A stretch of 31,072 nucleotides of DNA, from IMG/VR virus record IMGVR_UViG_3300025781_000038, positions 1 through 31,072 of that record, one strand, 5' to 3'. The first letter of the stretch is position 1. Each line of letters opens with the position of its first letter. The stretch is from a virus. The position numbers and the translations under genes were made by a program. Positions 3,316 to 28,518 of the stretch are shown here, in pieces. Below the pieces are notes generated by a model. It ran no database searches. It saw only the letters and a list, made by a program, of their open reading frames with translations, and was not told the origin of the DNA.

Positions 3316-3672
3316 ATGAGATTTATTGTTTATAAAATTACTAATCTTATAAACGGCAGATATTACATCGGTAGGCACGCTACAAAAAATGTCAATGATA
3401 GTTATATGGGTAGTGGTATAGCTATTAGAAACGCCATAGAAAAATACGGAATAGAAAATTTTAAAAAGGAAATTATTGCAGAAGCTGAATCTAGAGAAGA
3501 GCTCTGGGAGTTAGAAAAACGTATTGTAAACGAAACAGTAGTATCTGACGAAAAATCATATAATATGGCATACGGTGGTAAGCACTACTTAGATGGATTA
3601 AAAAATATAACCGAGAGGCATTTATACAACATCAGAGTGAGGCTGGTAAAAAAGGTGGTAGAGCTTGCATAA
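3316..3672 (+). CDS. GIY-YIG homing endonuclease, N-terminal part (frameshifted)
   Basis: The start has the GIY-YIG fold signature: VYKITN at residues 5-10 and YYIGRH at 16-21, then YMGSG and the ELEKRIV helix carrying the likely catalytic Glu. This family cuts DNA at recognition sites and spreads between genomes as a free-standing gene. It begins 4 bases after the preceding stop, with AAAGGG inside that gene's end as Shine-Dalgarno. After GGKHYLDGLK the frame goes wrong: the run of six A at 3600-3605 appears one base short, and the C-terminal part continues in the -1 frame to 3929. The nuclease domain itself is intact in this frame, so a truncated product could still fold, but it would lack the DNA-binding tail. 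Confidence 0.8.
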   Translation: MRFIVYKITNLINGRYYIGRHATKNVNDSYMGSGIAIRNAIEKYGIENFKKEIIAEAESREELWELEKRIVNETVVSDEKSYNMAYGGKHYLDGLKNITERHLYNIRVRLVKKVVELA

Positions 3673-4341: not shown

Positions 4342-4763
4342 GACTACGTGATCTAACAGAATCTAACACAAAACCCATACATACCAAAACTCCGGCACTA
4401 GCACCAGAGATCCGTAGCACAATCTCACCTACTATGACTATTCCAGATTTGGTTAATAGCGACACCTATAGACAATATAGATATTCTCTAGCACTAGCAT
4501 CAGCTGAAGCTGTAAAAGCTGGTGAAGTTGTATTTGATGCAGAAAGCACCTGGAATGAAAGTCTTGCTGCTATTGCATATACTCCACAAGAGTTAGAAAT
4601 ATTCAAACTGGCTAATAAAATGATGGGTGTTGACGGTGTAATGATATCTGATTCACCAAGTCAGGAACCAGAGAATACTCAAAAAGTTAGTCCGGTAATG
4701 AAGTTCAACATGTTTGAATCTGAATCTGATCAGATGCGTGATACTATTGAAAAGATAAAATAA
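4338..4763 (+). CDS. unknown leader-bearing protein, tandem paralogue
   Basis: This 141-aa protein starts MRLRDLTESN, with an LTE tripeptide at residues 6-8 that fits a T4 gp21-type cleavage site. It shares AIAYTPQELEIF and the C-terminal MKFNMFESESDQMR with its upstream neighbour and is clearly a tandem duplicate. Residues 45-70 form an extra helical stretch (TYRQYRYSLALASAEAV). No enzymatic motif is visible. It is the last gene before a non-coding gap holding a late-promoter-like octamer. Confidence 0.7.
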   Translation: MRLRDLTESNTKPIHTKTPALAPEIRSTISPTMTIPDLVNSDTYRQYRYSLALASAEAVKAGEVVFDAESTWNESLAAIAYTPQELEIFKLANKMMGVDGVMISDSPSQEPENTQKVSPVMKFNMFESESDQMRDTIEKIK

Positions 4764-4813
4764 TCAACCATAATCAACATAGCGTATACCCGGTCTACTC
4801 ATTCGCAAATGTA

Positions 4814-4821
4814 CATAAATA
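4814..4821 (+). promoter_or_regulatory. T4-type late promoter octamer CATAAATA
   Basis: This lies in the 120-base gap before the 908-aa gene, 62 bases from its ATG. A Shine-Dalgarno-like AAAAGG precedes that ATG. The rest of the gap holds nothing else I recognise. Confidence 0.4.
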
Positions 4822-4883
4822 ATCTAGACTTGTAATTTCTAGCAACAGGCACCGTCTGACTGTTAGAACAAAAAGGTATTAAT

Positions 4884-7610
4884 ATGCGTTTATTTGAAGT
4901 TTTTGATGCAACTCCGGTGAAGCTTATCAATGAAGGTGGTAATTTAGAATTACCAGGCGGTCATGTAGCTGATTCTATCAATTTAAAAGTTCACGACAGA
5001 TCATTCATTGTGCCTGTGCTTGAAAAACTGTTGAATAACATCAATGCTGCATATGCCAAAGCATATAATAAACCATTATGGTCATCTACTCTTCTAAAGA
5101 GTGGTAAGTTTCTAAGCGGTAGCAGTTTGCATTTCTTCAATACCAATATACCAGACAATGAGTTTGTCAAAGTAAAACCAAAGGTCGGTGATATTGATAC
5201 ACAAGTAAACAAAGCAGACGAAGAAAAGTTAGAAAAATTCCTAGAAAAAATTCAAGGTAAGAAATTGGGCAATGCTAAATTCTTGGGATTTAAAAGAGGT
5301 AATGAACAATTCAGTAGTTTATGGGAGTTATCAACCCCGCCTCTTAAAATTCAAATTGATTTAGAATTTGTTTCATACGAACGAGGTAAACCAACATCTT
5401 GGGCACAGTTTAGTCACAGCAGTAGTTGGGATGACATACAAGCGGGTATCAAAGGTGTATTTCACAAATATGTTATTCAAAGTTTCTCATCACTTACAAA
5501 ACAAGATTTTTTGTTAAGAAAGATGGTTGGTAGAGGCAAAGCAAGAACATTACAAGATGTACCTGCTACTGATAATATGGTTAGTTTTGCTGTGAGCAGC
5601 AAAGAAGGCGGCGGATTAAGACAAAAATATGAGCCTGTTATTGATCCTGTTACAAAAAAGCCGTTGATAAAAGACGGTTTACCAGTGTTAACAGCAAGAC
5701 CTACAGAGGGGTATGATCAAAGTCTAGCAGGTATATTCAGCAAACTATTTGGAAAAAAACTTAGTCATGCATTGTTTGAAAAACTCAGTGAAAAATTCTG
5801 GAGTTTTAAAGGCCTACTTGAAGTCATGAACTTGCTGTTGGATAACAACGAAAAACAACGTGTAGTTGATTCGTTCACAGACAAGCTATTTGGTAAAGGT
5901 GCACAGGGTTTATACAAAGGCGATCCTGATCGCGATATCAAGGAAAAAATAGTTGCTTTAAGAGTCATGTTAGAAACTCTAGACATGACAGAGCCAAGTG
6001 ATCTAAAACAAAAAGTAAAAGATTACAAAGCATCATATAAGGTATTAGATGAAGCTGATGCACCGAACTATGCTCGTCAAGGTATCAAACACATTTATAA
6101 TCCCGGTTCTAGCACTGAAATGAAGGATGCTGATTTTTTAGAGTTAGTAAATGAAATTCATGCCAATGGTGGTAACCTAGATGGTTTTCCTATCAGTCTC
6201 AAAGTAGATGGTGCTGGTATTAGATTTGGTAAAGATGAAAATGGTCGTGCTTTTTTGATGACTTCTCGAGTTATCAAACCTTTATATGCAGAAAATGTCG
6301 GCGACTTTGAGAAGTACGGGAAGAGTGTGGGTCAAACTGACGAACAACTTGCTAGAACACGCAATTACGATCGTGCGTTAGACACTATTGTAAACAGCGA
6401 TTGGATACAGAAACTACCTAAGGACACTATTGTACAAGCAGAAATGTTGTACAATCCCATGGCAGAAAAAACTGCAAATGGTTTAAAGTTTGTTAATATA
6501 TCATACGACCCGAAAAAACTAGGGTCAACTATGACACTTGTACCAATCAGCTTCCGTAGATACAGTACAGGTGATGTATTACCTAATGCAAATGAAATAA
6601 AAGACATGCTATTAAAGAGCAGCACTTCTGCAATTAAATTTGTCAATAGTGATCTTAAACAAGCTAAAATAGACGTTAGTAAAATTATAGATCCAGTTGT
6701 TAAAATGGGAACAGAATTAAGAACAGCATTAGGATCGCGTAAGAAAGATGATCCTCTTAAAGCAAAGGCAAAAGATATTCTTACACAAGTTAGGAAAGCA
6801 CTTTCGGATGCAATTATCCATAATCCAAATCTTGTGGGCAAAGAACAATTGGGTAAAAACCTAGAAGGCATAGTTATTAAAATGCCAAGTGGTATGTTAG
6901 TAAAAGTTACAAGTTCTGACATGCAAGATATTATGGCCGCAAAAAAGGCGGCAGCACCTAGAACGGGTAGCAATCGTATAAAGCCTGCAGTGGTTACAGT
7001 TGGTAGCTTTGTTGGTCATATCGGTCATCAACATTTGGTTAACCTAGTTCTACAAAAAGCCAAAAAGGTTGGTGGTGATCCCTACGTTTATATCAGTCCC
7101 AAAGTTGGTCCAGATGACCCATTCCCACCTCAGGTAAAATTAGAAACTTGGAAAAAACTATATCCAGAACATGCAAGTATGTTTCAAATTATAGCGGCTC
7201 CGGATGGCAGCCCATCCACTCCTATGAAAAAAATTGAAAAAGATTTAGTATTACCCAAAACCAGTCCCTACAATAAAATCATCCTTATGGTAGGGGAAGA
7301 TCGTTATGATAGTTTCAAGACATGGATAGAAACTCTTGAAAAGCGCATGAAAGATCCTGCTGCTCTAGCAAAGTTTGGTGGCACACAGGATCAAGTTAGT
7401 TATGAAGTAATAGGTATACCACGTAGCAAAGAAAACGGCGGCACTGATATGAGCTTTACTGAACTACGCAATGTTCTTAAAAATCCCAATGCAACGGACG
7501 GACAAAAACTAGCAGTATGGGAAAAAGGATTCGATGTTAAGAAACTGGGAGTTCCTTATATCAAACATTTAATGGCAATTGCTGAAAAAAACATGGGGAT
7601 AACAAAATGA
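4884..7610 (+). CDS. fusion: pol-beta-type nucleotidyltransferase + ATP-dependent ligase + NMNAT-like domain
   Basis: This 908-aa protein begins with the leader MRLFEVFDATPVKLINE. Residues about 60-170 fit a pol-beta nucleotidyltransferase: SGSS at 78-81, then GDIDTQV at 102-108 (two acidic residues) and QIDLEF at 157-162 (third). Residues about 400-680 fit a covalent nucleotidyltransferase of the DNA/RNA ligase family: K440 in SLKVDGAGIR (KxDG), E520 in VQAEML, EGIVIK at 661-666 and VKV at 673-675. Residues about 700-900 fit a HIGH-superfamily nucleotidylyltransferase like NMNAT: GHIGH at 711-715 and SFTELR at 857-862. All key residues seem present. The set suggests nucleic-acid end repair plus NAD or nucleotide metabolism. 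It overlaps the next gene by ATGA. Confidence 0.75.
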   Translation: MRLFEVFDATPVKLINEGGNLELPGGHVADSINLKVHDRSFIVPVLEKLLNNINAAYAKAYNKPLWSSTLLKSGKFLSGSSLHFFNTNIPDNEFVKVKPKVGDIDTQVNKADEEKLEKFLEKIQGKKLGNAKFLGFKRGNEQFSSLWELSTPPLKIQIDLEFVSYERGKPTSWAQFSHSSSWDDIQAGIKGVFHKYVIQSFSSLTKQDFLLRKMVGRGKARTLQDVPATDNMVSFAVSSKEGGGLRQKYEPVIDPVTKKPLIKDGLPVLTARPTEGYDQSLAGIFSKLFGKKLSHALFEKLSEKFWSFKGLLEVMNLLLDNNEKQRVVDSFTDKLFGKGAQGLYKGDPDRDIKEKIVALRVMLETLDMTEPSDLKQKVKDYKASYKVLDEADAPNYARQGIKHIYNPGSSTEMKDADFLELVNEIHANGGNLDGFPISLKVDGAGIRFGKDENGRAFLMTSRVIKPLYAENVGDFEKYGKSVGQTDEQLARTRNYDRALDTIVNSDWIQKLPKDTIVQAEMLYNPMAEKTANGLKFVNISYDPKKLGSTMTLVPISFRRYSTGDVLPNANEIKDMLLKSSTSAIKFVNSDLKQAKIDVSKIIDPVVKMGTELRTALGSRKKDDPLKAKAKDILTQVRKALSDAIIHNPNLVGKEQLGKNLEGIVIKMPSGMLVKVTSSDMQDIMAAKKAAAPRTGSNRIKPAVVTVGSFVGHIGHQHLVNLVLQKAKKVGGDPYVYISPKVGPDDPFPPQVKLETWKKLYPEHASMFQIIAAPDGSPSTPMKKIEKDLVLPKTSPYNKIILMVGEDRYDSFKTWIETLEKRMKDPAALAKFGGTQDQVSYEVIGIPRSKENGGTDMSFTELRNVLKNPNATDGQKLAVWEKGFDVKKLGVPYIKHLMAIAEKNMGITK

Positions 7611-15571: not shown

Positions 15572-18500
15572 ATGAACATAGATAAAATGGTGGGTCAATT
15601 TCGAGAATTCTTGTTATTCTGTAAGGATCATTTAGAATTAGATAAACTACCTAAAATACATTGGTATACAAACGATGATGTAGGTGAATCACGTCCTAGT
15701 TTTGGATCATTTCATAATGAAGATCAAGTTATTAAAATTGGTATCAATAATCGCCATCCACTGGATATAATGAGAACACTGGCACATGAGCTTACTCATT
15801 ATAAACAATGGACCCAAAATAAACTGCATAGTGGTAGTGGCGAAACAGGCAGTCCTGAGGAAAACGAAGCCAATGCTGTAGCTGGTATTATCATGCGTGA
15901 CTGGAATGCTGCTCATGAAGAAATGTTCAAACAGACTGCAATTGACGAAGCAATAACTCTGGGTAAGAAAAAAGATGGTAGAGCAGCAAAATGGATTGAC
16001 CATATGTATGCTACCCTACCACGTAATCCAATGAATCCCGATCAAATTGCACTTGTGTATGGCGAGGGCGATGATCAAGGACTAGCATTAATAGAATTAG
16101 AACTAGACCACTACTATGCTGATACTGCTAATATCAAATGGATACAAGCATATCCACAACGTCAAGGTGTTGGTCGTAAAGCTCTAACAGACATACAACA
16201 TATGGCAGCAGAAGCAGGTGTAAGTCTTTCATTGGTTACGTGGAAATTGGGTAAAGTTTCGCCCAAGGCACTTGCCAAGTTTTATAAGAGCATGGGGTTC
16301 GGAAAAGATACTAAGAGCGGACAGTTAAAATGGACTGCACCTGTTAGTGAATCTGACGCAGATAGTGTCCCGCAGGAAGTTTGGGATTTTATAAAAGATC
16401 TTACAAGTGAGGACGTCGGTAAAGAACGTATAGACGACTATGTAGTCCACTTTGAAGGATTTAGTGACATGTGCCAAATTGCCGCAGCAGAACGTTGTAA
16501 GTTACCCAGCACAGATCCTCTACATTTAAACAAGTATGACGATGTGTATGATGAGGTACTTGCAGATTTTATTGGCAGAGAAGCAGGTGATAAACCTGTA
16601 GCAAGTGGTTTAGCAGGAGACGAATGGTATCCTATATTTTACGCAGTATTCTATAAACCAATTTTAGATGAATCAACATTAACACACATTGATCAACATC
16701 ACGATCACGGAGGAAGTTTAGAAGGTTATGTAGTAGATACAGATCAACCTCAGTTATACAACTATCTAACAGGACAAGGTGCTAGCCCAGAATTAGCCAA
16801 AAAGATAGCATCAAAATATCACCGCGTCGGTATTATACGTAACATGTGGGTTGATGAAGATTTACGCAACGGCGGAATAGGCAGCGAAATGCTAGAATCT
16901 GCAATCGATCAAGCATTTGGGCAAGGTGCAGATGCTATTATATTAGTAGCTGACATGGCAGAAGATAACTCACAACTTGGTAAACCTCTGGACAAATGGT
17001 ATGCGGGTTGGGGATTCGAGACTGTTGGTCGTGCCGGCAGTGATATTGTAATGGTTCTTGATAACGAACTACACGAAGTTTGGAGCAAAAAATACAAAAA
17101 AAGTATCAATTGTAGTCATCCAAAAGGCTTTTCACAGAAGGCTCACTGCGCCGGACGTCGTGCTAGACAAGCAGGCAAACACACAAAGAGCAAAAGCGTG
17201 AGTGAATCTGCTATTAATAAACTATATGATCGCAAACATTTGGATACGTGTTTAGTTAAACTTTGCAGTATGATAGTTGAGGGACAACAAACCGATCCGG
17301 ACTATCACGGTATGGTCGCTGCGGCTGTGTTAGATCCGGATCATAATAAAACTGCTAGTACCAGTACTAGAAAAGATGGTAAATGGAGACATGCTGAACG
17401 TAATGCTATAGACTTATACCTAGAAACATATGGCGAAATCCCTGAAGGTAGCATTATTGTAACAACATTAAGTCCGTGCGATAACGCAATGAGCAATCGT
17501 TATGGACATAGTTGTACTGACTTAATTAATGAATGTCCAGTAAACGAAGTCTACTGTGGATATATGGATCCAAGCCAACTTGACGAAGATTTTGAATTCA
17601 CTGTCGAAGATACTAAAAATACAAAAATACAAGAGCTATGTAAGAAGTTTGCTGCTACATTCCTGGTCAATGAGAACTTTGCAGACGGTAAGGGCCCGGG
17701 TAGACCAGGAGATAGTCAGCGTCATGGTATTCCCAAAGGTGCTACAATAGCACAATTAGAGAAGGCTGCTAAGGCACCAGGACGCAAAGGTCAACTAGCA
17801 CGTTGGCAGTTGAACATGCGTAGAGGTCGTGCTAAGAATGAAAGCATAGTAAGTGAAGGCACTACAGCGTTTCATAGCAGTGCAGTATCAACTATTTCTA
17901 AGTTTAATTCTTTCAGTCATTTTGGGACAGAAGCAGCAGCCGCGGATAGAATTAAAAATCTTATCAAACAAAAAAGACTAAGTCCCGATGCACTTATTAC
18001 AATCTATAGTGTTGATTTAAATATTAAGAATCCACTTATGATAAGAGACTATGCTAATGTGCAGCATTCAGCAGGAATCTATGCAGCAGCTCTTAAAGAT
18101 AAAAAGATAATTGATCAAGATATTATGGTTAGAATACGATCAAACAATCCATTTAGCGATGTCGACTCGGATCAATCCACTGAGGAAAAAAGCAAGTTAT
18201 GGCCTAAGTACGAAAAAAATAATCTAGCTACTATAAAGAAAATTCTTAAAAGCAAGGGATATGACGGATTAGTTTATAAGAACGCAGCAGAAGATAAAGG
18301 TAGTTTATCATATGTTATTCTTGATCCTAATCAAGTACGTATAACAGGAAAGAAACAAATTCCTGCTAAAGAATTGATCAAAACAAATAAACTTAAAGTT
18401 GCCGAAGATAGCAAATTATTAGACAAGCCAACACCAACTGTTGGTGAGCTAGCAGAAAAATATCATACCAGTTTGTTAGCAGTTGAACAACAAATGCGCA

Positions 18501-18622
18501 AGGGTATTAGAGTAGAGATGGAACATACTGGTAAGTATAGAGTTGCAAAGGAAATAGCATTAGATCATCTAGGGGAAGATTTATACTATTACGAAAAATT
18601 AGCTAAAGTTGAGAAAAAGTAA
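15572..18622 (+). CDS. polyvalent multi-domain protein: zincin, two GNATs, deaminase, ART-like, DUF5661-like
   Basis: This 1016-aa fusion can be read in blocks. 60-110: zincin metallopeptidase, HELTH at 72-76 with a possible third ligand in EENEAN. 125-255: GNAT 1 (QRQGVGRKAL, FYKSMGF). 380-500: GNAT 2 (NGGIGSEMLESA, WYAGWGFETVG). 505-535: basic two-Cys module (NCSHPKGFSQKAHCAGRRAR). 575-665: cytidine-deaminase-type domain with HAE at 608-610, PC at 635-636 and C648. 705-755: basic GRPGDSQRHGIPKGAT module. 765-930: ART-like domain of the polyvalent type (AFHSS, FSHFGTEAAAADRI, GYDGLVYKN, SYVILDPNQV). 955-1016: DUF5661-like end (MEHTGKYRVAKEIALDHLGE). Such proteins enter the host with the DNA. 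It has no MR leader itself. Confidence 0.7.
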   Translation: MNIDKMVGQFREFLLFCKDHLELDKLPKIHWYTNDDVGESRPSFGSFHNEDQVIKIGINNRHPLDIMRTLAHELTHYKQWTQNKLHSGSGETGSPEENEANAVAGIIMRDWNAAHEEMFKQTAIDEAITLGKKKDGRAAKWIDHMYATLPRNPMNPDQIALVYGEGDDQGLALIELELDHYYADTANIKWIQAYPQRQGVGRKALTDIQHMAAEAGVSLSLVTWKLGKVSPKALAKFYKSMGFGKDTKSGQLKWTAPVSESDADSVPQEVWDFIKDLTSEDVGKERIDDYVVHFEGFSDMCQIAAAERCKLPSTDPLHLNKYDDVYDEVLADFIGREAGDKPVASGLAGDEWYPIFYAVFYKPILDESTLTHIDQHHDHGGSLEGYVVDTDQPQLYNYLTGQGASPELAKKIASKYHRVGIIRNMWVDEDLRNGGIGSEMLESAIDQAFGQGADAIILVADMAEDNSQLGKPLDKWYAGWGFETVGRAGSDIVMVLDNELHEVWSKKYKKSINCSHPKGFSQKAHCAGRRARQAGKHTKSKSVSESAINKLYDRKHLDTCLVKLCSMIVEGQQTDPDYHGMVAAAVLDPDHNKTASTSTRKDGKWRHAERNAIDLYLETYGEIPEGSIIVTTLSPCDNAMSNRYGHSCTDLINECPVNEVYCGYMDPSQLDEDFEFTVEDTKNTKIQELCKKFAATFLVNENFADGKGPGRPGDSQRHGIPKGATIAQLEKAAKAPGRKGQLARWQLNMRRGRAKNESIVSEGTTAFHSSAVSTISKFNSFSHFGTEAAAADRIKNLIKQKRLSPDALITIYSVDLNIKNPLMIRDYANVQHSAGIYAAALKDKKIIDQDIMVRIRSNNPFSDVDSDQSTEEKSKLWPKYEKNNLATIKKILKSKGYDGLVYKNAAEDKGSLSYVILDPNQVRITGKKQIPAKELIKTNKLKVAEDSKLLDKPTPTVGELAEKYHTSLLAVEQQMRKGIRVEMEHTGKYRVAKEIALDHLGEDLYYYEKLAKVEKK

Positions 18623-19109: not shown

Positions 19110-19739
19110 TTATCTTCTATGTTGTTTCGATAACATCCCAGAAACCCACTCATCTCCTAATGGTTTTTCTTTTGAAGATATATTAATAATTCCGTTATTA
19201 TACCATTTATTCCCAGTTGTTGTTGGTTTTTGATTAATTCTTCCTCTCACCCATTCAGGACCTAACGGTTCAATTAAAAATTTACTCACCATACCGTTAT
19301 TATACCAACGTCGTAATCTATTTGTTTCTGATCTTCTGATACTAGACGCTAATCTAACAGCTTCTGAGTGTTTTCTTCCAAACATATTATTTCTGGAGCC
19401 TTTACGGGACTCTGAAAAATGTTTTCTTAATTCAATTGAAGCTTTATAACCAGATAAACCGTCGCCGCCGTTTGTTCTATTTCTTAAAATGCCGGTACCT
19501 ATATCTTTTCGACCATACCATCTTATTAATCTACGTTCTATTGCTAATGCACCTAATTCTGTTAAATTTGATTCGATAATAATAATTTTGGTAGTATCTT
19601 TTGGAGTTGGCACATTTGTATGAGTTTCCCAAGCTCTGTTATCTTTTCCTTTTCCTATATAATATGGTGTGTTATTAGACTTTCTGATATAGGCGTAAAC
19701 ATAATACCCCACTGGGTATTTGGTTAGATAAGTAGTCAT
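19110..19739 (-). CDS. GIY-YIG homing endonuclease with NUMOD3-type DNA-binding motif
   Basis: The 209-aa minus-strand protein opens with the nuclease signature: YYVYAYIRKSN near residues 12-22, PYYIGKGKDNRAW near 25-37 and an RRLIRWYGR helix with the IER acidic residue near 88. It then has RNNMFGRKHSEA (about 116-127), a NUMOD3-type DNA-recognition motif seen in Seg-type endonucleases. The tail holds two copies of a WYNNG repeat (about 144 and 178), each followed by PLGxEWV (FLIEPLGPEWVRG and KEKPLGDEWVSG). Its AGGAG Shine-Dalgarno is well placed. It is inserted on the opposite strand between two phage genes and looks intact, unlike the GIY-YIG gene at 3.3 kb. Confidence 0.85.
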   Translation of the reverse strand: MTTYLTKYPVGYYVYAYIRKSNNTPYYIGKGKDNRAWETHTNVPTPKDTTKIIIIESNLTELGALAIERRLIRWYGRKDIGTGILRNRTNGGDGLSGYKASIELRKHFSESRKGSRNNMFGRKHSEAVRLASSIRRSETNRLRRWYNNGMVSKFLIEPLGPEWVRGRINQKPTTTGNKWYNNGIINISSKEKPLGDEWVSGMLSKQHRR

Positions 19740-23014: not shown

Positions 23015-26000
23015 ATGTATGTTGATGCAATTATAGAGAAAGATAAGAACCAGATTTTGGTATCAGAACGAAATGCGGCCGGTCAACGGGTTCTCGTAAC
23101 ACATCCGACTCGATATGTTGTATATTGGCCCAGCGAACGAGGCAAATACACCAGCATTTTTGGTACAAAACTTGAAAGATATCAAACATCTAAAGAAAAA
23201 GAATTTAAGCGAGAAGTCGCTTTATTACCCAGGGTAAAATTACACGAAAGTGATATAAATCCCATATTTAGATGCTTACACGATCACTATAAAGATGCAC
23301 CAACACCGGATCTACATGTTGGTTTTCTAGATATCGAAACTGACTTTGATCCGTTAAGAGGTTTTAGCAGTCCAGACGATGCATTCTCCCCTATTACAGC
23401 TATCAGCATCTATCTAAATTGGATAGAAAAGAATTTTACACTTGTGATCAAACCCAAAGGAATGAGTACAGCAGCAGCACAACAAATAATAGATCAATTT
23501 GAAGATACAGTATTGTGCGAAAACGAAAAAGAATTGCTCGAAGTTTTTCTAGCTTTGATAGACGATGTTGATGTGTTATCCGGATGGAACTGTATAAATC
23601 TAAACGAGTATGTACACTGTGAAGACCGATTATTGAGTCTCAAGAATATCACAACAAATCAAAAATTAAAAAATGGTCAAACAGTGATAGATACACATAA
23701 ATCTGGGTTAAAGAAGAACAATCATCTAATAACTATACACGGGCATAAACTAGAATTATCTGACGAACATGTTATACCTGTTTATTCAAAAGAGCCATTA
23801 AAATATAAATGCCCGTCAACCTTGTTTGAATCAAGACAAGAGTTGAACGTCAGAGACATTAAACAACTTATGAAAAAGAATCAAGATGTATTTGTTGAAT
23901 TGCACACTGTCAGAAATAATAATGAGGACTTGACTTATAAAAAATTAATACTAGAAAACCTTGATGTACTTATTAATTGTAACATTGATATTATCATTGA
24001 CGATCGAAAAATAAAAAAGAAATACCAAAAAGAGTTAGGATATAAATCTACTAATTATGTGTTAACTTACAAAAAAGTTAAACATCTTTTAACAAATGAT
24101 CAAATAAAAGATTATTTAAATAGTAAAAATATCCATGGATTTTATATTAATGCAAAGAGCAAAGCTTTTCGATTGGACATTACTCAAATTATTCAACACG
24201 ATGCACTTAAAATTTTAGGTTTTGTCTATACCGACGGATTTTATTCTAATTATGATAAATGTTTTGGCGCTTGTAATAAAAATGATGGAATTATTTCTAA
24301 TTATAATATTTTGTTAAAAAACTTAAATATTTACAACAAATGGAAATTAAAAAATCAAGATAAAATTTTTTATACCACTTTTAGTGGGCAAACTGTTATA
24401 GGTTTGTTATTACCGTTAATATATACTTTTAATCAAAAATATACAAAACAGTTAAACACTGAATTGTTATCACGGTTATCATTTGATCAATTTAATTCAT
24501 TTTATTCTGGCATGATCGATGGTGACGGATCTGTCGATAAAAAATCAATAACACTTTGCAATTATAACGACGATGCATATAGCCTGTCAGCACTTTTATC
24601 GTGGAACGGTATATATGCATCAGTTAGAAAAAATTATATTAGAATTCCTACAATTGTATCTAATTTAGATTTTATTAAAAATTTACAATTATCACACTCA
24701 CTTAAAAATAAAAAATTATCAAATATTTCAATAACCAATACATCTAATAACACCTCTCGTAAAAAGCTACACGCTTTTCATATGAATAACATACATTTGA
24801 TTAAAATTTCAAAAATTATAGAAACTGACGAATTAGTTGAAATGGGTGATATACAAACATCCGATCATTACTTTATTTGTAATGGTGTAAAAGTACATAA
24901 TTCAGAAGCATATGACTTGCCATACATACACAATCGTATTGTACAAGTCATGGGTAAGGATGAAACTCGTCGTCTTTGCTTGTGGAATAAACTGCCCAGA
25001 AAACGAGAGTACGAAAGTTACGGTCGCGAAACCATTACATATGATCTAGTAGGTCGAGTACATTTAGACTACTTGCAACTGTATCGCAAGCATACCTATC
25101 ACGAGATGCATAGTTATCGACTGGACTTTGTGGGCGAGTATGAAGTAGATGAAAAGAAAACACAGTATGAAGGCACACTAGACGCACTTTACAACAATGA
25201 TTTCCGTAAGTTTATTGAATATAACAAGCAAGATGTTATGTTGTTAGTCAAGATTGATAAGAAACTGAAGTTTATTGAACTTGCTAATAATCTTGCACAT
25301 ACCAATTGTGTGTTATTTCAAACAACTATGGGTGCAGTTGCACTGATCGATCAAGCCATTGTTAATGCTGCACATGACATGGATCTTATGGTTCCTACCA
25401 GAATCAGAGAAACGCAAGAAGAAAAAGAAGCACGTTGGGAAGAAGAAGAAAGCGTAGGAGGATCAGTTGTTGGTGCATATGTAGCAGATCCCAAACAGGG
25501 TATGCATGATTGGATTGGTGGTGTTGATATTAACTCACTGTATCCGTCAACAATTCGCGCACTGAACATGAGCCCTGAATCTATCGTCGGGCAAATAAGA
25601 CCTGAAATGACAGATAAACTGATTGCTAAACGTGTCAAAGAAGAAAAACGCAGTTTCGCTGACGCATGGAATAACATGTTTGGAACGCTGGAATATGAAG
25701 CAGTAATGGCACAGAATCAAACTCCTCTGCAAGTAGATTTTGAAGATGGTAGTGCTGTTACTGTTACCGGTAAGGAAGTATACGATCTTGTTTTTAAGAG
25801 TGGTAAGAAGCTTACTATCAGTGCCAATGGTACTATTTTTAGCTATGACAAGGCAGGATTGATACCAGGAGTTCTAGCACGTTGGTATGCTGAACGTAAG
25901 GATCTACAAAAAGAAGCCAGGAAGTGGGCATTAATGGCTGACGAAGCTGTTGGAGAAGAAAAGTCTGAATTCAAAAAGAAGGCTGTATTTTATGATCAAA

Positions 26001-26548
26001 GACAGTTGATCAAAAAGATTCTACTTAACAGCTTGTATGGCGCTGTTGGAAATCCTGGTTCGCGTTGGTTTGACCCTCGTGTTGCACAAAGCACTACACT
26101 AAGTGGTCGTTGTATTGTGCGTCATATGCAGGGTAAGATCAACGAGATCATTACCGGCAACTATGATTACATGGGAGAAAGTATTATATATGGTGACAGT
26201 GTAACTGGTGATACTAAAATATTAACAGACGACGGAGAAATAACTATTTCCCAAATGTTTAATCAATGCCTTGAAAAATCAATTGTAAATGAAAAGGAAT
26301 ACGGTTTATGGCCTCAACATAGAGTTCTAGGATTTAATGCATATGAAGACAATGCAGTTATATCAGTTCCATCTCATGTTATGAGACATAAAACAAAAAA
26401 GAAAATTTATGAAATAGAATTAGAAAACGGTAAATTGGTTAAAGTTACCGAAGACCATAGCATTATGGTTGACCGAGATGGATTCTTACTAGAAGTTAAA
26501 CCCACCGAAATAAAAGAAACTGATCAAATCATATGTCTAAAGAGATAA
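23015..26548 (+). CDS. 43: DNA polymerase family B (gp43), N-terminal polypeptide with a full intein and an N-intein
   Basis: This 1177-aa chain carries most of the replicative polymerase plus two intein pieces. Exonuclease: FLDIETDFDP (Exo I, D106/E108), then GWN, the intein 23591-24901, then SEAYDLPYIHNR (Exo II rejoined), then EYNKQDVMLLVKID (Exo III). Polymerase: VDINSLYPSTIRALN (motif A) and KKILLNSLYGAVGNPG (motif B). Motif C stops at IIYGD and the chain then runs into a 116-residue N-intein and a stop. The rest of motif C (TDS) is on the 27505 gene. Removing intein parts leaves 192 + 432 residues here and 295 there, 919 in all, close to T4 gp43. It cannot polymerise without trans-splicing. 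Confidence 0.92.
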   Translation: MYVDAIIEKDKNQILVSERNAAGQRVLVTHPTRYVVYWPSERGKYTSIFGTKLERYQTSKEKEFKREVALLPRVKLHESDINPIFRCLHDHYKDAPTPDLHVGFLDIETDFDPLRGFSSPDDAFSPITAISIYLNWIEKNFTLVIKPKGMSTAAAQQIIDQFEDTVLCENEKELLEVFLALIDDVDVLSGWNCINLNEYVHCEDRLLSLKNITTNQKLKNGQTVIDTHKSGLKKNNHLITIHGHKLELSDEHVIPVYSKEPLKYKCPSTLFESRQELNVRDIKQLMKKNQDVFVELHTVRNNNEDLTYKKLILENLDVLINCNIDIIIDDRKIKKKYQKELGYKSTNYVLTYKKVKHLLTNDQIKDYLNSKNIHGFYINAKSKAFRLDITQIIQHDALKILGFVYTDGFYSNYDKCFGACNKNDGIISNYNILLKNLNIYNKWKLKNQDKIFYTTFSGQTVIGLLLPLIYTFNQKYTKQLNTELLSRLSFDQFNSFYSGMIDGDGSVDKKSITLCNYNDDAYSLSALLSWNGIYASVRKNYIRIPTIVSNLDFIKNLQLSHSLKNKKLSNISITNTSNNTSRKKLHAFHMNNIHLIKISKIIETDELVEMGDIQTSDHYFICNGVKVHNSEAYDLPYIHNRIVQVMGKDETRRLCLWNKLPRKREYESYGRETITYDLVGRVHLDYLQLYRKHTYHEMHSYRLDFVGEYEVDEKKTQYEGTLDALYNNDFRKFIEYNKQDVMLLVKIDKKLKFIELANNLAHTNCVLFQTTMGAVALIDQAIVNAAHDMDLMVPTRIRETQEEKEARWEEEESVGGSVVGAYVADPKQGMHDWIGGVDINSLYPSTIRALNMSPESIVGQIRPEMTDKLIAKRVKEEKRSFADAWNNMFGTLEYEAVMAQNQTPLQVDFEDGSAVTVTGKEVYDLVFKSGKKLTISANGTIFSYDKAGLIPGVLARWYAERKDLQKEARKWALMADEAVGEEKSEFKKKAVFYDQRQLIKKILLNSLYGAVGNPGSRWFDPRVAQSTTLSGRCIVRHMQGKINEIITGNYDYMGESIIYGDSVTGDTKILTDDGEITISQMFNQCLEKSIVNEKEYGLWPQHRVLGFNAYEDNAVISVPSHVMRHKTKKKIYEIELENGKLVKVTEDHSIMVDRDGFLLEVKPTEIKETDQIICLKR
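23591..24901 (+). mobile_element. cis-splicing intein with LAGLIDADG homing endonuclease in the Exo II motif
   Basis: 437 residues interrupt GWN|SEAYDLPYIHNR. The intein starts with Cys (CINLNEYVHCEDRLLSLKN), has a block-B-like HKLELSDEHVIPV with the conserved His, two dodecapeptide motifs (ILGFVYTDGFY near intein residue 205 and FYSGMIDGDGSV near 305) and ends with YFICNGVKVHN before Ser+1. So Cys1, the penultimate His, the terminal Asn and Ser+1 are all present and splicing should work. The DOD endonuclease acidic residues also look intact. The segment is visibly more AT-rich than the exteins, as expected for an incoming mobile element. Confidence 0.93.
26198..26545 (+). mobile_element. N-terminal half of a split intein (IntN) inside polymerase motif C
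   Basis: Directly after IIYGD comes SVTGDTKILTDDGEIT, a standard intein block A with Ser1, and later KKIYEIELENGKLVKVTEDH, block B with the T-x-x-H pair. At 116 residues, ending ICLKR, it is the length of a complete N-intein without endonuclease. The matching C-part begins the gene at 27505. Confidence 0.9.
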
Positions 26549-26550
26549 TT

Positions 26551-26577
26551 ATATGGCAATAGGAGGTATTGCCATAT
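26551..26577 (+). promoter_or_regulatory. perfect RNA hairpin with the Shine-Dalgarno as its loop
   Basis: ATATGGCAATA (26551-26561) and TATTGCCATAT (26567-26577) are exact reverse complements, with the loop GGAGG (26562-26566). The loop is the ribosome-binding site of the endonuclease gene, and the A and T of its ATG (26576-26578) are in the stem. This should restrict translation of the endonuclease. Hairpins that sequester the ribosome site are known for T4-type homing endonuclease genes. Confidence 0.85.
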
Positions 26578-27529
26578 GCCAAAATGTAAAGAATGTGGAT
26601 TCGAAGCAAGTAGATTACAATGGACTCATTTTAGATATAATTGTTCAGGTCGTTTTAAAAATGGCACAGATTATTTAAAAAGTTATCCTAACGAAATTTT
26701 AGTTGATAAAGATTTATCTAAAAGAACGGCTGTAACTTTAAATAATTTTATTAAAAAATATGGAGAAAAAGAGGGTACAGATAAGTGGGAGGCATATAAG
26801 CAGAAACAAGCTTATAGTAACACATTTGAATATAAGAAAAACGTTCATGGGTGGAATGAAGAAAAATTCAGTGAATATAATAAATCAAGAGCAGTAACTC
26901 TTAATAATATGATATCCCGACACGGAGAAGAGGAAGGAATCAAACTATGGGATGAATACTGCGAAAGACAGGCATATACCAATTCTCTTGAATACTTAAT
27001 TGAAAAATATGGTAAAGTAAAAGGCTTATTAAAATTTAAAGAAATTAATAAGAAAAAATCTGAAAGTCATGATCCAGTTGCAATAGCTCACAAATCTAAC
27101 ATATCTATTGATGAAGCAGTAGAATTAATTTTAAACCGACAGAATTTAAAATATTTTAGTCAATTAGAACGAGAATTTGTTAATCTTATAGAATCTATTA
27201 CTGGAAAATTAGATCACACATCATTCAATAAACCTTTTGGAAAATGGTGTCACGAACTCGAAACGTACTTAATATATGATATTAAACATAATAACTGTAT
27301 AGTTGAATTCAATGGTAATTATTGGCATGCTGATCCTAAAATATACAATCATGATCATATGATAAGACACCGATCTGCTCAAGAAATTTGGAAAAGAGAT
27401 GAAATTAAAATAAAACTTGCTAAAGAGTTAGGGTACAATGTAATAGTCATATGGGAAGATGAATTTTTAAAAGATAAGGTTAATACCGCAAAAAAGGTGG
27501 CAGAATGGATATTGAAAGAACATTTATAA
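26576..27529 (+). CDS. free-standing Vsr-like (EDxHD-type) homing endonuclease in the polymerase gap
   Basis: This 317-aa protein begins with a zinc-finger-like segment (CKECG..QWTHFRYNC, residues 4-23). It has two clear repeats and a weaker third of a YGxxEGxxxWxxY..QAYxNSxEY unit (about 59-86, 113-140 and 142-163), probably DNA-binding NUMOD-type repeats. The nuclease domain (about 195-317) has CHELETYLIYD, then CIVEFNGNYWHADP (241-254), IWKRDEIKIKLAKELGYNVI and VIWEDEFL. This is the PD-(D/E)xK-like core of Vsr-related homing endonucleases known from fractured phage genes. It lies exactly between the two polymerase halves and overlaps the second by 25 bases. It presumably cuts intein-free polymerase genes. 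Confidence 0.85.
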   Translation: MPKCKECGFEASRLQWTHFRYNCSGRFKNGTDYLKSYPNEILVDKDLSKRTAVTLNNFIKKYGEKEGTDKWEAYKQKQAYSNTFEYKKNVHGWNEEKFSEYNKSRAVTLNNMISRHGEEEGIKLWDEYCERQAYTNSLEYLIEKYGKVKGLLKFKEINKKKSESHDPVAIAHKSNISIDEAVELILNRQNLKYFSQLEREFVNLIESITGKLDHTSFNKPFGKWCHELETYLIYDIKHNNCIVEFNGNYWHADPKIYNHDHMIRHRSAQEIWKRDEIKIKLAKELGYNVIVIWEDEFLKDKVNTAKKVAEWILKEHL

Positions 27530-27630
27530 AATCAGTTAAATGTTTGGGTGAGGTTGAAGATTATGTGTATGATATTAGCATAAACGACGGTGATCCATTC
27601 TTTTTTGCCAATGATATCCTGGTTCATAAT
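27505..27630 (+). mobile_element. C-terminal half of the split intein (IntC)
   Basis: 42 residues ending VYDISINDGDPFFFANDILV + HN before Thr+1. They contain block F (VYDIS) and block G (FFANDILVHN) with the penultimate His and terminal Asn. The +1 residue is Thr, a valid nucleophile with Ser1 on the N-half. Confidence 0.9.
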
Positions 27631-28518
27631 ACAGACTCTGGCTATTTCTCTGCCTATACTGTTATGAAAAATCAACCAGAATTCAAAGATTTTGAGTGGA
27701 GTAAAGAAAATATCACTGATTTATATGACAAGATTGCTGATATGACCAATGACAGTTTCCCTGGTTTTATGAATCAAGCATTTAATTGTTCTCTGGAAAG
27801 TGGTGCTATTATTCGAGCAGGTAGAGAACTTTGCGCAGTTAAAGGCTTGTTTATTACCAAAAAGCGTTATGCAGTGTTGATTTATGACTCTGAAGGTAAA
27901 CGAGTCGACGTCGATGGTAAACCCGGTAAGATCAAAGCCATGGGATTAGATCTCAAGCGATCTGATACACCAAAAACTGTGCAGGACTTCTTAAACGATG
28001 TACTAGTTGCTACACTTACAGGTAAACCCAAAGAAGAAATATTCCAACAAATAAGTGATTTTAGACGAGAATTCCGTAGTTGGGACAAGTGGTTACAAGG
28101 TTCACCTAAACGTGTTAATAATATGACACATTATGAGAACGTACGTAAAGCACAGGAAAGGATGAATTGGAGTGTAACCGCAGTAACCAAAAAGACCAGT
28201 ACCCCGGGTCATGTTGCTGCTAGCCTAAATTGGAACAAGTTACGCAGAGTTTATAATGATCATTATAGCATGGCTATTACAGATGGTACCAAGGTAGTTG
28301 TGTGTAAACTAAAGCCAAACCCAGCAGGCATTACCAGCATTGCATATCCCGTTGATGAAATGAATTTACCAAATTGGTTTAAGGAATTACCATTTGACAG
28401 CGATGCAATGGAACAAGCATTAATTGATAAGAAATTGCAAAATTTGCTTTCTGTCTTAAACTGGGATCTCAATGCTCATAAAGACAACGGTAGTTTCGAT
28501 GACTTATTCAGTTTCTAA
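27505..28518 (+). CDS. 43: DNA polymerase family B (gp43), C-terminal polypeptide preceded by a C-intein
   Basis: This 337-aa chain starts with a 42-residue C-intein (see separate entry), then TDSGYFSAYTVMK, which completes polymerase motif C (YGD|TDS). It continues with the thumb: KGLFITKKRYAVLIYDSEGK (the KKRY region that contacts the primer end) and PKRVNNMTHYENVRKAQERM. It ends with SLDDLFSF-like DDLFSF, which resembles the C-terminal clamp-binding tail of T4 gp43. The start ATG at 27505 lies inside the endonuclease gene and has AGGTGG at 27495-27500. Made separately, this chain is useless without its partner. Confidence 0.92.
   Translation: MDIERTFIKSVKCLGEVEDYVYDISINDGDPFFFANDILVHNTDSGYFSAYTVMKNQPEFKDFEWSKENITDLYDKIADMTNDSFPGFMNQAFNCSLESGAIIRAGRELCAVKGLFITKKRYAVLIYDSEGKRVDVDGKPGKIKAMGLDLKRSDTPKTVQDFLNDVLVATLTGKPKEEIFQQISDFRREFRSWDKWLQGSPKRVNNMTHYENVRKAQERMNWSVTAVTKKTSTPGHVAASLNWNKLRRVYNDHYSMAITDGTKVVVCKLKPNPAGITSIAYPVDEMNLPNWFKELPFDSDAMEQALIDKKLQNLLSVLNWDLNAHKDNGSFDDLFSF

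What the first reader, a model, noticed from the sequence alone, without database searches (positions are those of the whole stretch)
23015..28518. Replicative DNA polymerase broken through its catalytic motif by a split intein with an endonuclease gene in the gap
Seen directly: the N-chain stops after IIYGD plus an intein N-half with block A and block B. Then comes a complete Vsr-like endonuclease gene. Then a chain beginning with an intein C-half (FFANDILVHN) continues TDSGYFSAY. The break divides the YGDTDS metal-binding motif, so neither chain can be active alone and polymerase activity must depend on protein trans-splicing. Known: 'fractured genes' with split inteins and this endonuclease family have been described for other phage genes (for example gp41 helicase and ribonucleotide reductase). 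Inference: this is the same arrangement in a T4-type polymerase, and it coexists with an ordinary intein in the same gene.
Basis: partly seen in the sequence, partly recalled or inferred. Interest (0 to 1): 0.9.

Follow-up and report, generated by a model that had tools for sequence, protein, structure and literature searches.

The report
Phage polymerase split by trans-splicing intein
A phage DNA polymerase gene is cut in two inside its active site by a split, self-splicing protein insert with a homing-nuclease gene in the gap, an arrangement already known from other phages; its environmental relatives show that such inserts sometimes lose the nuclease and fuse back into one piece.

Summary
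A family-B (T4 gp43-like) polymerase is encoded as an N-chain ending in a 116-aa Ser1 intein N-half (26198-26545), a 317-aa Vsr/EDxHD-type endonuclease gene (26576-27529), and a C-chain starting with a 42-aa intein C-half (27505-27630). The break is exactly YGD|TDS; removing the inteins leaves 919 residues, 89% identical to an uninterrupted relative (L015). A second, ordinary LAGLIDADG-type intein (23591-24901) sits at GWN|SEAYD in the exonuclease domain. The best explanation is protein trans-splicing plus homing.

The kind is known. Aeromonas phage Aes123 is annotated gp43B1/VSR/gp43B2 and its split intein is characterised; Campylobacter CP21, Tenacibaculum PTm1, Klebsiella KP13-7 and Pseudomonas MIJ3/PA5oct have the same or a sister arrangement. 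This window is a new member. Its insertion lies two codons upstream of Aes123's (Thr+1, not Ser+1), and it alone among about 150 loci carries the exonuclease-site intein.

A survey of 80 IMG/VR intein loci gave 52 split with full endonuclease, 12 with remnants, 3 with none, 4 re-fused into continuous mini-inteins, 9 cut by contig ends. One re-fused intein still carries the endonuclease's last codons and stop in another frame. Splicing itself is untested.

The parts
23015..26548 (+). N-chain ORF: PolB N-extein with internal cis intein, ending in split intein N-half
   Evidence: ORF; PF00136 and PHROG_262 DNA polymerase
23015..23590 (+). extein segment 1 (exonuclease domain, up to ...VLSGWN)
   Evidence: 88% aa identical to uninterrupted L015 polymerase
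23591..24901 (+). continuous 437-aa intein at GWN|SEAYD: Cys1, terminal HN, Ser+1, LAGLIDADG-like motifs VYTDGFYS and GMIDGDGS
   Evidence: site empty in L015; C-terminal block matches intein C-half profile, P 82%, E 1e-5; weak LAGLIDADG_3 E 0.11 and I-MsoI E 0.008; no sequence relatives
24902..26197 (+). extein segment 2 (to IIYGD)
   Evidence: 92% aa identical to L015, dN/dS about 0.03
26198..26545 (+). split intein N-half (116 aa, Ser1, block B TEDH, His64 = Aes123 block X His68)
   Evidence: best PDB match 9HTH, Aes123 PolB1 intein, E 1.6e-13
26551..26577 (+). perfect inverted repeat: RNA hairpin with Shine-Dalgarno GGAGG in the loop and endonuclease start codon at its base
   Evidence: fold z -3.8; strong also in L017, weak elsewhere
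26576..27529 (+). free-standing Vsr/EDxHD-type homing endonuclease, 317 aa; conserved D235, E244, H251, D275; N-terminal Cys-rich motif and repeats
   Evidence: catalytic domain 193-317: Vsr 1CW0 Z 11.5, I-Bth0305I 3R3P Z 10.9
27505..28518 (+). C-chain ORF: split intein C-half plus PolB C-terminal extein; start overlaps endonuclease end by 25 nt
27505..27630 (+). split intein C-half (42 aa, ends VHN, Thr+1)
   Evidence: (intein_Cterm)
27631..28515 (+). extein segment 3 (TDSGYFSAY... palm/thumb C-terminal part)
   Evidence: 84% aa identical to L015, dN/dS about 0.05

Best explanation
A mobile 'fractured gene' element. The two polymerase chains are translated separately; IntN and IntC associate, Ser1 and Thr+1 drive class-1 protein trans-splicing, and YGD is ligated to TDS to rebuild the catalytic site. 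The cis intein at GWN|S excises itself in the same way within the N-chain, giving a 919-aa polymerase. The endonuclease in the gap probably cuts intein-less polymerase alleles around YGDTDS during co-infection, and repair copies IntN, endonuclease and IntC in (homing). Its expression may be held down by a ribosome-site hairpin. Shown: anatomy, conserved catalytic residues, empty-site relatives, patchy distribution, endonuclease fold. Inferred: splicing, cleavage, homing, hairpin control.
For: Exact junctions with all intein block residues present; IntN matches the Aes123 PolB1 intein structure 9HTH at E 1.6e-13, and that intein trans-splices in vitro (PMC11923092). Uninterrupted relative L015, 89% aa, with both sites empty. 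Low dN/dS (0.03-0.05) over all three extein segments relative to L015, though dS is saturated. Complete genomes KP13-7 and PA5oct and a 302-kb contig contain only the fractured PolB, no intact copy. Endonuclease invariant in the D/E/H/D residues and fold like Vsr and I-Bth0305I. The intein state is scattered over the polymerase tree: window next to empty L015 and L016, L017 next to empty L085; IntN 56-67% and IntC 71-81% identical to L017-L019, L096, L097 where exteins are 52-55%. Intein and endonuclease DNA is 26-31% GC against 38-40% in exteins. Many homologues with the same break.
Against: No splicing, cleavage or expression data. L015 is not very close (80% nt, dS above 1), so gain in the window lineage versus loss in L015 is not decided, and no co-conversion tract is visible. 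The window is a 31-kb fragment, so a second polymerase elsewhere in this phage cannot be excluded. Hairpin covariation is not significant. The cis intein's fold could not be modelled (pLDDT 33).
Confidence: 0.93

Rival explanations
1. The two chains assemble non-covalently into an active polymerase without splicing, like gp43A/gp43B of Aeromonas phage 25.
For: Split PolB halves without inteins co-purify and are active in phage 25 (PMC2988022); the L020 relative has an additional non-intein break near residue 534.
Against: The break lies between the catalytic Asp and Thr-Asp of YGDTDS, both ends carry intact intein halves, and the splice-junction residues are kept across dozens of split homologues.
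Confidence: 0.03
2. A decayed, non-functional polymerase (pseudogene).
For: Essential motif is interrupted; a second insert lies in the exonuclease domain; the phage is known only from a fragment.
Against: All frames open, active-site residues intact, dN/dS 0.03-0.05 on both sides of the break; complete phages with the same break have no other PolB.
Confidence: 0.02
3. Assembly or sequencing artefact (chimeric contig).
For: Window comes from a metagenomic viral contig.
Against: Flanks are collinear with L015 and the arrangement recurs in isolates and many independent contigs.
Confidence: 0.01
4. RNA-level splicing (group I intron carrying an endonuclease) restores the gene.
For: A group I intron does interrupt the polymerase of relative L016.
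Against: No Rfam intron match anywhere in the window; both sides of the gap encode intein halves.
Confidence: 0.01

Closest known systems
Aeromonas phage Aes123 gp43B1 / VSR endonuclease / gp43B2 (Aes123 PolB1 split intein, JN377899; PMC11923092)
   Same: PolB broken in its catalytic motif by a Ser1 split intein with a Vsr-type endonuclease gene in the gap; IntN 120/IntC 39 aa versus 116/42 here; endonuclease 31% identical.
   Different: Insertion two codons later (YIDTD|S, Ser+1) versus YGD|TDS (Thr+1) here; Aes123 also has the gp43A/43B non-intein break; no exonuclease-site intein; Aes123 IntN has no Cys (here two non-catalytic Cys in IntN and one in IntC).
Pseudomonas phages MIJ3 / PA5oct split PolB intein (PMC6892783)
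   Same: Split PolB with IntN and IntC on separate chains and an endonuclease gene between; among the closest isolated jumbo-phage polymerases.
   Different: YGDTD|S register; a different, larger endonuclease (annotated Hef-like or HNH).
Klebsiella phage KP13-7 / phiKp_21 (OP617745, LC768491)
   Same: YGD|TDS, Thr+1, Vsr-type endonuclease 35% identical, no intact PolB in the complete genome.
   Different: Longer, diverged IntN; not annotated as split intein; no cis intein.
IMG/VR relatives L017, L019, L096, L097, L106-L183
   Same: Same site, same +1 Thr, same endonuclease (47-56% identical in the five aligned in full).
   Different: None testable has the exonuclease-site cis intein; several have lost the endonuclease or re-fused the intein.
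Salicola phage SCTP-2 PolB mini-intein
   Same: Intein at YGD|TDS in a homologous polymerase.
   Different: Continuous, no endonuclease.

Membership tests
Fractured-gene arrangement (split intein plus endonuclease in the gap; Dassa et al. 2009, paper not held, features from citing papers and own knowledge) | Host gene broken at a conserved motif by an intein split into two ORFs | tested here: met
   YGD|TDS, IntN 116 aa, IntC 42 aa on separate ORFs
Fractured-gene arrangement | Free-standing endonuclease gene lying between the two halves | tested here: met
   26576-27529
Fractured-gene arrangement | Trans-splicing and homing activity | not testable with these tools
   No wet-lab data
Cysteine-independent split PolB inteins (Aes123 PolB1 family) | Ser1 and Ser/Thr+1 nucleophiles | tested here: met
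   Ser1, Thr+1; general definition in PMC13014065
Cysteine-independent split PolB inteins (Aes123 PolB1 family) | Block X histidine specific to cysteine-less inteins | tested here: met
   His64 here aligns with Aes123 His68, invariant in 12 sequences
Cysteine-independent split PolB inteins (Aes123 PolB1 family) | Canonical split at endonuclease position (IntN about 100-120, IntC about 35-50 aa) | tested here: met
   116 and 42 aa
Aes123 PolB1 allele in the strict sense (same insertion site) | Insertion at YxDTD|S with Ser+1 | tested here: not met
   Insertion is YGD|TDS, two codons upstream, Thr+1. Not filed as the same allele; it is a homologous intein in a neighbouring register
Vsr/EDxHD homing endonucleases (I-Bth0305I) | Vsr-like catalytic fold | tested here: met
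   AF2 pLDDT 84; VIA Z 11.5 to Vsr 1CW0, 10.9 to I-Bth0305I 3R3P over residues 193-317; Foldseek E only 0.12
Vsr/EDxHD homing endonucleases (I-Bth0305I) | Conserved acidic/His active-site residues | tested here: met
   D235, E244, H251, D275 invariant in six homologues
Vsr/EDxHD homing endonucleases (I-Bth0305I) | Cuts the intein-less allele of its host gene | not testable with these tools
   Needs purified enzyme
LAGLIDADG full-length intein (23591-24901) | Cys/Ser1, terminal HN, +1 nucleophile, precise empty site in relatives | tested here: met
   Cys1, HN, Ser+1; L015 GWNSEGFD without gap
LAGLIDADG full-length intein (23591-24901) | LAGLIDADG domain and Hint fold | tested here: inconclusive
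   Weak LAGLIDADG_3 and I-MsoI; no usable model; C-block profile match

The most novel reading that the evidence does not exclude
In this phage polymerase site the split form is the ancestral, mobile state: the free-standing endonuclease is then lost by deletion, leaving endonuclease-less split inteins, and repeated deletions fuse IntN and IntC back in frame, creating continuous mini-inteins. This reverses the usual assumption that split inteins derive from continuous ones. Evidence: full, remnant, absent and fused states in one clade; four continuous inteins nested among split ones, parsimony 4 changes versus 22 without re-fusion (some nodes weakly supported); and continuous L115 retains the endonuclease tail KVKKWILKEQL* in the alternative frame across the fusion, a perfect 31-nt match to split relative L111.
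Probability: 0.75. Interest if true: 0.55.

Novelty: new member of a known kind. Interest (0 to 1): 0.45.

Why it matters
The locus adds a Ser1/Thr+1 member to the small set of cysteine-independent, canonically split inteins that protein chemists want, with a large natural family (264 IMG/VR stretches) behind it, the best 80 all at the same site. The relatives lay out, in nature, steps of a split intein's life: invasion with an endonuclease, endonuclease loss, and re-fusion to a continuous mini-intein. That makes the question of which way continuous and split inteins interconvert directly testable by building the L111/L115 pair. Two inteins gating the exonuclease and polymerase centres of one enzyme also offer a natural test of combined cis- and trans-splicing.

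Tried and rejected
Cis intein: no relatives in phages, viral or genome contigs; single-sequence AF2 gave pLDDT 33 and was not used; its N-terminal block did not align to the IntN profile. Endonuclease by single-sequence phmmer: no PDB match, and no Pfam family above cut-off, so a profile and a model were used instead. Recent-gain argument from L015: dropped, because synonymous sites are saturated and no co-conversion tract shows. Late-promoter motif TATAAATA before the endonuclease: exact in L019 and L096 only, density in the loci not above chance in most, dropped. Hairpin covariation: not significant. RNA intron in the window: none. tRNA: none.

Full report
What is there. Three + strand ORFs encode one family-B DNA polymerase in pieces. 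The N-chain (23015-26548) reads polymerase up to IIYGD and continues into an intein N-half, SVTGDTKIL...TEDHSIMV...IICLKR (26198-26545). The C-chain (27505-28518) starts with an intein C-half ending DPFFFANDILVHN (27505-27630) and continues TDSGYFSAY. Between them lies a complete 317-aa gene (26576-27529) whose last 25 bases overlap the start of the C-chain. A second intein of 437 aa (23591-24901) interrupts the N-chain at GWN|SEAYD in the exonuclease domain. Removing both inteins gives 919 residues. Pfam, PHROGs and NCBIfam independently call DNA polymerase and intein splicing regions.

The empty sites exist. Viral contig L015 encodes a 920-aa uninterrupted polymerase that is 89% identical to the spliced window protein, with GWNSEGFD and YGDTDSGYFSAY intact, in the same gene neighbourhood. 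The three extein segments show dN/dS of 0.037, 0.030 and 0.051 against L015, so both sides of the break are under purifying selection; dS is saturated, so this says nothing on the date of the insertion.

The split intein. It has Ser1, block B TxxH, the block F/G residues and terminal HN, and Thr+1. The histidine that is specific to cysteine-less inteins (Aes123 His68; block X in PMC13014065) is His64 here and invariant in twelve homologues. By sequence its best solved match is 9HTH, the Aes123 PolB1 intein (E 1.6e-13), followed by the archaeal PI-PkoII intein.

The endonuclease. A profile of six homologues hits E. coli Vsr at E 0.013. An AlphaFold model from the same alignment has mean pLDDT 84, and its residues 193-317 align to Vsr (1CW0, Z 11.5, 113 residues, 3.0 A) and to the EDxHD homing endonuclease I-Bth0305I (3R3P, Z 10.9, 96 residues); Foldseek alone ranks Vsr first but only at E 0.12. 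D235, E244, H251 and D275 are invariant. Its ribosome site GGAGG sits in the loop of a perfect 11-bp inverted repeat that ends at the start codon, the only such repeat with a short loop in the window (fold z -3.8). Hairpins over the ribosome site restrain T4 homing endonucleases (PMC2988022). The hairpin is strong in L017 and weak or imperfect in the others, and covariation is not significant, so this is a lead only.

Known relatives. The endonuclease search recovers 40 phage records, among them Aeromonas Aes123, Campylobacter CP21, Prevotella Lak phages, Klebsiella KP13-7 and Tenacibaculum PTm1; in nine of the ten loci inspected it lies between PolB or intein halves, and in Caulobacter Cr30 it lies beside the terminase gene. 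Aes123 is annotated gp43B1 / putative VSR endonuclease / gp43B2 with N- and C-intein, and the intein is characterised in vitro and structurally (PMC11923092). Split inteins of CP21, LCGC14 and GOM-OPS-1 PolB were reported in 2025 (PMC12707363), MIJ3's in 2019 (PMC6892783). So the arrangement in a T4-type polymerase is known. In complete genomes of KP13-7 and PA5oct and in a 302-kb contig only the fractured polymerase is found.

What differs. Aes123, PA5oct, PTm1 and the Lak phages insert at YxDTD|S (in Lak, GDTD|S) with Ser+1; the window, KP13-7, SCTP-2 and all 80 best IMG/VR loci insert two codons earlier, at YGD|TDS, those with a readable C-side having Thr+1. The cysteine-less split inteins reported in PMC12707363 use Ser+1. 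No insert at the exonuclease site was found in any other locus that could be tested: 77 of the 80 IntN loci and nearly all of about 80 polymerase loci. The exonuclease-site intein therefore looks rare; whether that site is new to inteins in general I could not establish.

Mobility. On the polymerase tree the split state is scattered: the window pairs with empty L015, and L017 pairs with empty L085. IntN is 56-67% and IntC 71-81% identical between the window and L017-L019, L096 and L097, where exteins are only 52-55% identical. Intein and endonuclease DNA is 26-31% GC against 38-40% for the exteins. Gain by homing, with some loss, is the simplest reading; direct proof is lacking.

A decay series that goes beyond the finding. 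Among the 80 best IntN loci, 52 are split with a full endonuclease, 12 split with remnants, 3 split with none, 4 continuous, and 9 run off the contig (a few loci are near-duplicates from related metagenomes). The remnant in L018 begins abruptly inside the catalytic domain next to the IntN stop. The four continuous inteins (159-163 aa) are nested among split ones; parsimony needs 4 re-fusions, or 22 separate splits if re-fusion is forbidden, although some nodes are weakly supported. In the pair L111 (split, full endonuclease) and L115 (continuous, 1052-codon open frame) the joined sequence is explained by a deletion of about 950 nt between short repeats AAAA(C)GGTAAA, and L115 still reads KVKKWILKEQL* in the endonuclease frame, a perfect 31-nt match to the L111 endonuclease tail / IntC start. 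L132 keeps the same stretch with 6 mismatches against a best of 11 in shuffles; L112 (10) is borderline and L144 (14) shows nothing.

Verdict. The system is a new member of a known kind, with a different insertion register and an added exonuclease-site intein. The more surprising result is the evidence in its relatives that split inteins can turn back into continuous mini-inteins.

Noticed in passing
L111:4280-5340, L115:4800-4900, L132, L112, L144: Continuous mini-inteins nested among split ones; L115 keeps the endonuclease's last codons and stop in another frame, implying re-fusion of a split intein by deletion of the endonuclease gene.
   Followed up: yes
L018:6310-6525: Split intein intact but endonuclease reduced to a C-terminal remnant of about 70 codons; 12 of the 80 surveyed loci carry remnants and 3 have no endonuclease.
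   Followed up: yes
L005, L001, L010 versus window: Two insertion registers six nucleotides apart (YxDTD|S and YGD|TDS) occupied by homologous inteins and endonucleases.
   Followed up: partly
L016:6083-6297: A close relative's polymerase is interrupted instead by a group I intron (Rfam RF00028, 104 bits) with a preceding HNH-like ORF (4726-5928) near the KKILLNSLYG motif.
   Followed up: partly
L020:2938-4635: Extra non-intein break near polymerase residue 534 with a 565-aa endonuclease in the gap, so this polymerase is encoded in three pieces, as in Aes123 gp43A/B1/B2.
   Followed up: partly
26551-26577: Perfect hairpin with the endonuclease's Shine-Dalgarno in the loop, possibly a translational brake as in T4 homing endonucleases.
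   Followed up: partly
3316-3672 (+) and 19110-19739 (-): Further endonuclease-like genes in the window: SegE-type GIY-YIG and an HNH homing-endonuclease-like ORF.
   Followed up: no
869-1891: UvdE-like UV-endonuclease gene (E 8e-32).
   Followed up: no
15572-18622: 1016-aa ORF that combines GNAT acetyltransferase, dCMP/cytidine deaminase-like and DUF5661 regions.
   Followed up: no
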